A DNA stretch of 64,000 nt from an uncultured Lachnospiraceae bacterium (GTDB lineage Bacteria; Bacillota; Clostridia; Lachnospirales; Lachnospiraceae), in assembly GCA_902796595.1 (NCBI GenBank), contig CADBPM010000031.1:1-64000 (forward strand), written 5' to 3'. Position 1 is the first letter of the stretch; each line of letters opens with the position of its first letter. The notes under the pieces are model-generated. The model did not search any database, was not told where the DNA came from, and worked only from the letters and a program-made list of their open reading frames with translations. Shown here piece after piece: positions 8,241 to 20,512 of the stretch. A program made the position numbers and the translations under genes.

Positions 8241-9023
8241 ATGAATGCGCAAATATTAACGGGAACACTGATTCCTTTCATTGGGACAGCAGGGGGCGCG
8301 GCGATGGTGTACCTTATGCGGGGGCAGCTAAAGGAAAATACAACAAAGGCATTGCAGGGCTTTGCTGCAGGAGTCATGGTTTCTGCGTCATTTTTTTCAT
8401 TGCTTATCCCTTCAATAGAACAGTCGGAATCAATGGGAAAGCTGTCATTTATTCCTGCGGTGGTTGGTTTTCTTCTTGGTGTTGCCTTTTTGCTTATACT
8501 AGATGAAATAATACCTCATCTGCACATGAATTCTGATGTCCCTGAAGGACGTAAAACTAATCTGAAAAAGACAACAATGATGGTTCTGGCGGTCACACTT
8601 CATAACATACCGGAAGGCATGTCGGTTGGAGCAGTCTATGCAGGCTGGCTTTACGGAGGTGGGAGTATAACTGCATCAGCCGCCCTTGTTATGGCAATAG
8701 GTATTGCTATACAGAATTTTCCTGAAGGAGCAATTATATCAATGCCTCTTTATGCACAGGGTGAAAGCAAAACGAGGGCTTTTGCTTCTGGAGCATTATC
8801 AGGCGCAGTTGAGCCGATAGGGACTATTGTCACGATTATGCTTGCAGGACTAATTGTTCCATTTCTGCCGTATCTCTTAAGCTTTGCTGCCGGAGCCATG
8901 ATGTACGTGGTGGTTGAAGAACTGGTTCCTGAGATGTCGGCAGGTGAGCATAGTAATGTATCAACAGTAATGTTTGCAATAGGTATGGCAGTTATGCTAG
9001 CGCTCGACGTCGGGCTTGGGTAA
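8241..9023 (+). CDS. ZIP-family divalent metal transporter
   Basis: A 260-residue integral membrane protein of the ZIP/ZupT family, importing zinc or related divalent cations. The two signature metal-binding segments are HNIPEG (residues 121-126) and QNFPEG (158-163) in transmembrane helices 4 and 5; seven to eight hydrophobic segments are visible. GGGAGGG precedes ATG with good spacing. It begins 30 bases after hsdR, at the point where accessory DNA seems to end. Metal specificity cannot be read from sequence. Confidence 0.9.
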   Translation: MNAQILTGTLIPFIGTAGGAAMVYLMRGQLKENTTKALQGFAAGVMVSASFFSLLIPSIEQSESMGKLSFIPAVVGFLLGVAFLLILDEIIPHLHMNSDVPEGRKTNLKKTTMMVLAVTLHNIPEGMSVGAVYAGWLYGGGSITASAALVMAIGIAIQNFPEGAIISMPLYAQGESKTRAFASGALSGAVEPIGTIVTIMLAGLIVPFLPYLLSFAAGAMMYVVVEELVPEMSAGEHSNVSTVMFAIGMAVMLALDVGLG

Positions 9024-9029
9024 ATAAAT

Positions 9030-9180
9030 GTAGGTTGATAAGAGCATTCAGTAGGTTCTGTAAGTGACGGGAGTAAATTCCTTTACTAAATGCGAAAGTT
9101 CTTCTGATGACAGATCAGTTGTTTTAATCGTGGTCTAGGAAGCAAGAAGCTCCGAGGCTTTAGCCTCATTGGTAGTTCAC
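9030..9180 (+). ncRNA. Orphan TnpB-type omega-RNA / IS605-family right-end remnant
   Basis: The stretch GTCTAGGAAGCAAGAAGCTC, followed by a GAGGC-TTTA-GCCTC hairpin and then TTGGTAGTTCAC, matches the 3' end of omega-RNAs found at the right end of IS200/IS605-family tnpB elements in Clostridia. No tnpA or tnpB frame exists nearby, so this is a decayed or solo end. If still transcribed, the bases after TTCAC (the first codons of the next gene's longer frame) would lie in the guide position. Recognition is by remembered sequence pattern; the left boundary is approximate. Confidence 0.68.
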
Positions 9181-9224
9181 AGATGAAAGAATTGAGATTC
9201 TTGATACAAAATATGGGGGCGCAA

Positions 9225-10277
9225 ATGAAATTCAGCATTGTAGTTCCGATTTATAATGTAGAAAAATATTTAAAGCAGTGTATAGAAAGTATAGTAAACC
9301 AGTCCTATAAGGACATAGAGATAATATTGGTTGATGATGGTTCTACTGACTCTTCATCAGCTATTTGCGATGAATATGCGGAGAAAGACGGGCGTATAAC
9401 TGTCATTCATAAAGCAAACGGCGGTCTTGTCAGTGCAAGAAAAGCCGGAAATGAACTTGTTACAGGTGATTATGTCTGCTGTGTTGATGGTGATGATTAC
9501 ATAGCTTCTGATTATATAGAAGAATTTGCAAAGTATGCAGAAAAATATTCGCCGGATATTATTTATTGTGGGCATTATCAGGTGAAAAATGACAATGCGA
9601 TACCAATCCTTATCAAGTACAGAGAGGGCTATTATTCAAAGGATGATCTGAAAGAGGAGATATATCCGAGTCTTATAGAAAGTAAGAGTGGCAAGCGCCT
9701 CTTTCCGACAGTATGGGGGAAAGCTATTAAAAGAGACCTGTATTCACATAATCAGATGAATGTGTCCGATGAAATTACTTTTGGCGAGGACATTGCATGT
9801 ATAGTTCCATCTGTTTATAAATGCTCATCAATGTATATTAATAATAAACACTTGTATTATTACAGGTTTAATCCGGATGCCATGACTAAGAAAAAAGTAA
9901 GGCGAGGCTGGAAGGGGCTCTTGCTGATCTCAGAATTGCTAATGAGAGAGATCGGAGAGAAGGATCAAAACTTTATCCCTCAGATATACAGGTTTACAGC
10001 AAGCGAATTTTTTACGGTCGCAGCATCACAGTTTAATGGAAATGATCCTTATAAAGAGGTAAAGAAGGATATCATAGAGCATTTCAATATAGATTTATTT
10101 GATAAAGCGATAAGAGAGGCTTCTTATGAGGGAAAACGAGCGATCATAGTAAAGGATAGTCTGTATCACAGGAGGGTCTTTGTTCTTTATTTGTTCAATA
10201 AGATAGGAGTACATTTGCTGAAAACAATGAAAGAAATACGAATTAACAGAGAATGTCGAAAAATTAAAGATGATTAA
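9225..10277 (+). CDS. Family 2 glycosyltransferase
   Basis: Transfers a sugar from a nucleotide-sugar donor, probably to a surface polysaccharide or glycolipid. It has the GT-A fold start FSIVVPIYNVEKYL, the donor-binding DDGSTD at residues 37-42 and the metal-binding CVDGDDY at about 88. ATG 9225 is chosen because GGGGG lies just upstream and GT2 homology begins there; ATG 9183 would add 14 residues and abut the omega-RNA scar. About 350 aa, with a basic C-terminus and no clear membrane helix. Acceptor and sugar unknown; no other polysaccharide genes are adjacent. Confidence 0.88.
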   Translation: MKFSIVVPIYNVEKYLKQCIESIVNQSYKDIEIILVDDGSTDSSSAICDEYAEKDGRITVIHKANGGLVSARKAGNELVTGDYVCCVDGDDYIASDYIEEFAKYAEKYSPDIIYCGHYQVKNDNAIPILIKYREGYYSKDDLKEEIYPSLIESKSGKRLFPTVWGKAIKRDLYSHNQMNVSDEITFGEDIACIVPSVYKCSSMYINNKHLYYYRFNPDAMTKKKVRRGWKGLLLISELLMREIGEKDQNFIPQIYRFTASEFFTVAASQFNGNDPYKEVKKDIIEHFNIDLFDKAIREASYEGKRAIIVKDSLYHRRVFVLYLFNKIGVHLLKTMKEIRINRECRKIKDD

Positions 10278-20090: not shown

Positions 20091-20164
20091 CTAGTCAGCC
20101 ATGTGTAAAAGCTTTTGCGTTGACTGGCAGAGTGCAACATCGGCTAAACGCTGATGTTACAATA
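20091..20164 (+). repeat. Two-hairpin dispersed repeat, family H copy 1
   Basis: Shares the order hairpin 1, (G)GCAGAGTGCA, hairpin 2, ACAATAA with the copies at 20642 and 23281. Hairpin 2 here is AACATC...GATGTT. It abuts the 3' end of rnpB. Confidence 0.6.
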
Positions 20165-20512
20165 ATCGAGAGCCACTGTAAGCCGGGTTCTGTATCAGAT
20201 GATCATCTATCTAGTACCGATGTTGCCACCGGTCTCAATCGACCTACCTGAAAGCACAAGCGACGGGCCGCCGACGGGCTTTCTGTTTGGTCTTTCTTCG
20301 GATGGAGTTTACATAAGCCATGACTGTTACCAGCCATGCGGTAGTCTCTTAAGCTGCCTTTTCACCCTTACCAGATTATGCATCTGGCGGTAATTTTCTG
20401 CTGCACTTGTCCTGGGGTCACCCCCGCCGGACGTTATCCGGCATCCTGCCCTGTGAAGCCCGGACTTTCCTCTTCCTTAGGGAAGCGATCATCTGTGACT
20501 CTCGACAATCCC
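20163..20512 (-). ncRNA. rnpB: RNase P RNA
   Basis: The catalytic RNA of RNase P, on the minus strand. Conserved pieces read in order: GAGGAAAGTCCGGGCT (P3/CR-I side), ACAGGGCAGGATGCC, GGGTGAAAAGG with TGGTAAGGG, and GGTAGGTCGATTGAG near the 3' end. The terminal helix is formed by GTCGAGAGTCAC and GTGGCTCTCGA, giving the boundaries to within a few bases. The type is probably A-like because there is no obvious B-type signature, but this was not folded. Confidence 0.93.

What the first reader, a model, noticed from the sequence alone, without database searches (positions are those of the whole stretch)
9030..9224. Orphan omega-RNA end of a TnpB element abutting a glycosyltransferase gene
The conserved omega-RNA 3' end is present with no tnpA/tnpB. 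The position where a guide would begin coincides with the first codons of the glycosyltransferase's longer frame (ATG 9183). Either the element was excised imperfectly, leaving a scar, or a solo guide RNA remains that could be used by a TnpB encoded elsewhere. The guide-like bases would target the native locus.
Basis: partly seen in the sequence, partly recalled or inferred. Interest (0 to 1): 0.6.

Follow-up and report, generated by a model that had tools for sequence, protein, structure and literature searches.

The report
Leftover end of a TnpB transposon
A 42-base scrap of a known kind of jumping gene, the end that normally carries its guide RNA, sits in front of a sugar-transfer gene; the rest of the guide-RNA scaffold is gone and no matching partner enzyme was found in the genome, so it is almost certainly an ordinary genomic scar.

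Summary
Window 9139-9180 is a genuine IS200/IS605-type right end (omegaRNA 3' end). A covariance model built from right ends found by TnpB protein search hits it at 38.7 bits (E 2.5e-9), and it is the only hit in the host genome. The same exact end lies about 110 nt behind intact tnpB genes in other Lachnospiraceae. The remaining ~100 nt of omegaRNA scaffold is not recognisable: a full-length model (23 pairs, 12 covarying) scores 6.5 bits, background, against 34-104 bits for intact relatives. The two upstream signatures needed for folding, the GGAA loop that pairs with the terminal UUC and the CUUG strand that pairs with CAAG, are absent. Four tnpB-like genes and two tnpA genes exist in the genome, but none carries this right end. 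The guide-like bases have no other exact genomic match, and would not direct cutting of their own locus, because TTCAC is not a TAM. Best explanation: an inert right-end remnant upstream of a GT2 gene whose start is more likely ATG 9225 than 9183. A functional solo guide is unlikely here. In passing, another genome (G512) does carry about 15 solo-omegaRNA mini-elements plus tnpB fragments.

The parts
9139..9180 (+). Right-end remnant (omegaRNA 3' end) of an IS200/IS605-type tnpB element
   Evidence: R2 covariance hit 38.7 bits, E 2.5e-9, unique in genome; 42 nt align without gaps to the right ends of L067 and L117 (about 86% identical)
9143..9146 (+). CAAG, 3' strand of stem 2; its CUUG partner is absent upstream
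   Evidence: stem 2 pairs covary in A2; no CTTG in 9024-9138
9154..9167 (+). Terminal hairpin core GAGGC-TTTA-GCCTC
   Evidence: sequence; fold -10.7 kcal/mol for 9139-9180
9176..9180 (+). TTCAC, element terminus; the guide would begin right after it
   Evidence: invariant in A3; guide start after UUCAC shown in PMC11043419
9181..9196 (+). Guide-position bases AGATGAAAGAATTGAG (flanking host DNA)
   Evidence: only exact match in the genome is this locus
9123..9138 (+). TTTAA then TCGTGGTCTAG: possible TAM and left-end tip, or weak continuation of the omegaRNA (GTGG); undecided
   Evidence: TTTAA precedes the left ends of L141, L144, L146, L067; chance of TTTAA N0-12 CGTG in 115 nt about 0.006, motif chosen after the fact; GTGG...GGAAGC resembles L149
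9024..9122 (.). Intergenic DNA with no recognisable omegaRNA scaffold
   Evidence: R1 at background
8241..9023 (+). ZIP zinc transporter gene, intact
   Evidence: Pfam PF02535, 2.4e-22
9225..10277 (+). GT2 family glycosyltransferase gene; likely start ATG 9225 (longer frame from ATG 9183)
   Evidence: GGGGGC upstream of ATG 9225; Pfam PF00535, 1.1e-39

Best explanation
An inert remnant. A tnpB-bearing IS200/IS605-type element (or a tnpB-less derivative of one) once sat between the ZIP gene and the glycosyltransferase gene. Deletion and decay removed everything except its last ~42-53 nt, the right-end hairpin and TTCAC terminus. Shown: right-end identity, single copy, absence of scaffold signatures, absence of a TnpB with this right end in the assembled genome. 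Inferred: that it once was a full element at this site, that it is not expressed as a working guide, and that it has no present function.
For: Right-end model R2 unique genome hit. Full model R1 at 6.5 bits, E 6.2, versus 35-104 bits for most tnpB-linked or mini-element relatives, 20.8 for the degenerate solo element L067, and 21-23 bits for deletion derivatives L229 and L231. No CUUG and no GGAA or GAAC in 9024-9138, although ISDra2 uses the pseudoknot between the UUC of UUCAC and a GAA in the stem 1 loop, plus stem 2 (PMC10097598). Shortening the reRNA from its 5' side sharply reduces editing by SisTnpB (PMC11043419). Right-end-only and internally deleted copies are seen elsewhere, e.g. L231 and L229 in G512, and about 15 tnpB-less ends occur among roughly 50 pattern loci with enough upstream sequence.
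Against: The 42-nt end is well preserved (all end signatures intact), which is slightly better than expected for an old scar. The genome is a fragmented assembly (112 contigs, 97% complete), so a cognate element could be in a gap. No allele of the empty site was available for comparison.
Confidence: 0.85

Rival explanations
1. Functional solo omegaRNA: 9030-9200 is transcribed and loaded in trans by a TnpB encoded elsewhere, protecting or marking the locus.
For: Right end intact; other TnpB genes are in the genome; trans-type solo omegaRNA elements do exist in G512.
Against: Scaffold not recognisable; no promoter-like site in 8950-9300; own TnpBs of the L016/L017 type have a different end, GTTGAC with loop GTCAAC, R2 25 bits; no other exact target of the guide.
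Confidence: 0.05
2. Minimal non-autonomous element: TAM TTTAA (9123-9127) followed by a 53-bp single-hairpin element 9128-9180 made by fusion of the left-end tip to the right end, mobilisable by a TnpA in trans.
For: TTTAA plus CGTG matches left-end tips of L067, L141, L144, L146; chance about 0.006. Short PATE-like elements are known (PMC7290912).
Against: Motif chosen after seeing the window; CGTGG may equally be omegaRNA sequence as in L149; no left-end hairpin (ATGAATTG); single copy; the two TnpA genes seen belong to other elements.
Confidence: 0.07
3. Unrelated hairpin that resembles a right end by chance.
For: Only 42 nt match.
Against: E 2.5e-9 with a model built independently of this sequence; zero in controls.
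Confidence: 0.01

Closest known systems
IS200/IS605 elements with tnpB and omegaRNA (ISDra2 type; SisTnpB right ends ending in TTCAC, TAM TTTAA)
   Same: Terminal hairpin, GAAGCAAGAAGC and TTCAC terminus
   Different: No tnpA, tnpB, left end, stem 1/pseudoknot loop or stem 2 partner
PATE (palindrome-associated transposable element), e.g. the ends-only IS605 copy in Halanaerobium (PMC7290912)
   Same: No genes, ends-derived, short
   Different: A PATE keeps the left-end hairpin; none is found here and there is one copy only
Degenerate solo right ends L231 (G512) and L114 (GTDB contig), mini-element L067 (Lachnospiraceae)
   Same: Right end without tnpB; L231 is also right-end-only
   Different: They keep more of the scaffold (R1 20.8-41.6 bits) than the window (6.5 bits)
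TldR (nuclease-dead TnpB) with guide RNA
   Same: Only the idea of a guide-like RNA near a host gene
   Different: No TldR gene beside it; scaffold missing

Membership tests
IS200/IS605 right end (omegaRNA 3' end) | Terminal hairpin with GAAGC...TTCAC terminus | tested here: met
   R2 38.7 bits, E 2.5e-9
Functional omegaRNA | Complete ~100-nt scaffold scoring with the covariance model | tested here: not met
   R1 6.5 bits, E 6.2 versus 34-104 for intact ones
Functional omegaRNA | Pseudoknot partner GGAA in the stem 1 loop and CUUG of stem 2 | tested here: not met
   Motifs absent in 9024-9138
Functional omegaRNA | Cognate TnpB in the genome | tested here: not met
   4 TnpB-like genes, none with this right end; caveat: 97% complete, fragmented assembly
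Functional omegaRNA | Expression and loading | not testable with these tools
   needs RNA data
PATE / mini-element | Left-end hairpin plus TAM | tested here: inconclusive
   TTTAA present at 9123-9127, no left-end hairpin found
PATE / mini-element | Multiple copies | tested here: not met
   single copy

The most novel reading that the evidence does not exclude
9128-9180 is an intact minimal single-hairpin element (TAM TTTAA, TTCAC terminus), or the 3' part of an omegaRNA with an unknown 5' scaffold, still usable in trans by a TnpA or TnpB carried by other strains.
Probability: 0.05. Interest if true: 0.5.

Novelty: new member of a known kind. Interest (0 to 1): 0.13.

Why it matters
By itself little: one more decayed right end. 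It shows that a perfect-looking omegaRNA terminus does not imply a working guide, and that the stem 1/pseudoknot and stem 2 test separates guides from scars. The by-product, a genome with about 15 solo-omegaRNA mini-elements, most with a promoter-like stretch, is the better place to test whether TnpB uses guides in trans.

Tried and rejected
Rfam search of the window and locus: no omegaRNA family match. Single-sequence folding of 9024-9200: z -0.48, uninformative. Reading 9024-9138 as a degraded omegaRNA: rejected. CTTG at about 9014 as the stem 2 strand: rejected, it is in the ZIP coding end, and the congener ZIP protein has a similar SLG ending. 25-bp match 9190-9214 to C95 and 28-bp match to G039: inside or beside coding genes, no right end there. 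TTGAT at about 9036 as TAM: no support, relatives use TTTAA. Empty site in congeners: none, since the ZIP homologue in G002 has a different neighbour. Phage and plasmid collections: no match.

Full report
OBSERVATION. The locus lies between a ZIP transporter gene (8241-9023) and a GT2 glycosyltransferase gene. The 42 bases 9139-9180 match an IS200/IS605 right end. The exact pattern GAAGCAAGAAGCN(10-32)GGTAGTTCAC was found in 4 of 200 family genomes with no hit for the reversed control, and GAAGCAAGAAGCN(12-24)GGTAGTTCAC in 90 stretches of GTDB genomes. In L022/L034 (deposited as Lactobacillus rogosae) and L024/L077 (Falcatimonas) an intact tnpB ends about 110 nt before the same end. To avoid circularity I collected right ends through a TnpB protein search in the family, aligned 16 of them and built model R2. 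R2 hits 9139-9180 at 38.7 bits, E 2.5e-9, and nothing else in the genome at E up to 5 in the filtered genome search; a direct search of the own-genome tnpB loci gives a weaker 25.2-bit hit at the L017 right end.

HOW MUCH OF THE OMEGARNA IS THERE. Fourteen omegaRNAs from family elements and two further contigs give a consensus with 23 pairs, 12 of them with changes on both sides. The layout agrees with the ISDra2 cryo-EM structure: stem 1 with a GGAA loop that pairs with the terminal UUC, stem 2 CUUG/CAAG, stem 3, terminal hairpin (PMC10097598). Model R1 finds other omegaRNAs at 35-104 bits, the degenerate solo L067 at 20.8 bits, solo mini-elements at 34.7-49 bits and deletion derivatives at 21-23 bits. 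The window scores 6.5 bits, ninth in a list of noise. Neither CTTG nor GGAA nor GAAC occurs in 9024-9138. Alignment of 9024-9138 to the omegaRNA regions of the pattern loci is no better than shuffles, and in 397 family genomes only the right end recurs beyond chance. So only the right-end tip is left.

PARTNER PROTEINS. The genome has four TnpB-like matches and two Y1 transposases (one is in the L016 element). The L017 copy shows a right end ending in GTTGAC, with a GTCAAC loop upstream (by inspection), a compensated version of the pseudoknot. Its TnpB would therefore expect a different terminus. A TnpB of the L117 type is absent from the genome at E 1e-60. The assembly is 97% complete, so absence is strong but not absolute.

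TARGETING. In SisTnpB, whose elements end in TTCAC with TAM TTTAA, the guide starts right after UUCAC, and a target preceded by TTCAC is not cut (PMC11043419). Hence the window's guide-like bases would not make the locus its own target; only an empty site behind a TAM would be one. The first 16 bases have no other exact match in the genome, and near matches are only moderately above a reversed-pattern control.

LEFT BOUNDARY. Left ends of related elements begin after TTTAA with a tip such as ATAATCGTGCC-AAGAA or CACGCCGTGAGC-AAGAA and a hairpin ending ATGAATTG (L067, L141, L144, L146). The window has TTTTAATCGTGG at 9122-9133 but no such hairpin. A 53-bp element 9128-9180 is therefore possible, but the motif was chosen after the fact (chance about 0.006), and GTGG...GGAAGC also resembles the omegaRNA of L149.

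GENE START. ATG 9183 overlaps the guide position but lacks a ribosome-binding site; ATG 9225 follows GGGGGC, and the GT2 domain begins three residues after it. The remnant lies in the leader, not in the protein.

VERDICT. A real, small, almost certainly inert right-end remnant of a known element type (confidence 0.85). A functional solo guide is about 5% likely.

BY-PRODUCT. G512 (same order, another family) carries 19 right ends with distinct guides in the 2.1 Mb fetched. At least 11 of them are ~190-216-bp elements with TTTAA and a left-end hairpin, most with a TTGACT-TATAAT promoter-like stretch, and most with a complete omegaRNA. One tnpB 3' half at a contig edge (C36) carries the same omegaRNA, and a second tnpB 3' fragment lies in C59. 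I recall, from memory only, a report of omegaRNA-bearing PATEs in Geobacillus; that paper was not held.

Noticed in passing
G512 (L219-L230, L269): About 15 tnpB-less mini-elements (~200 bp: TAM TTTAA, left-end hairpin, promoter-like TTGACT-TATAAT in most, complete omegaRNA in most, unique guide each) share one omegaRNA scaffold with a tnpB whose 3' half lies at a contig edge (C36). Looks like a guide-RNA-only transposon family served in trans.
   Followed up: partly
L016 and L017 (own genome contigs C66 and C39): TnpB element whose right end is GTTGAC instead of GTTCAC, with a matching GTCAAC loop upstream: a compensated pseudoknot.
   Followed up: partly
L042 and L110: Two tnpB-less copies sharing a left-end stretch; L110 keeps a full omegaRNA (R1 71.6 bits), L042 a partial one (33 bits).
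   Followed up: partly
window 20163-20504, strand -: RNase P class A RNA gene (Rfam RF00010, 287.7 bits).
   Followed up: no
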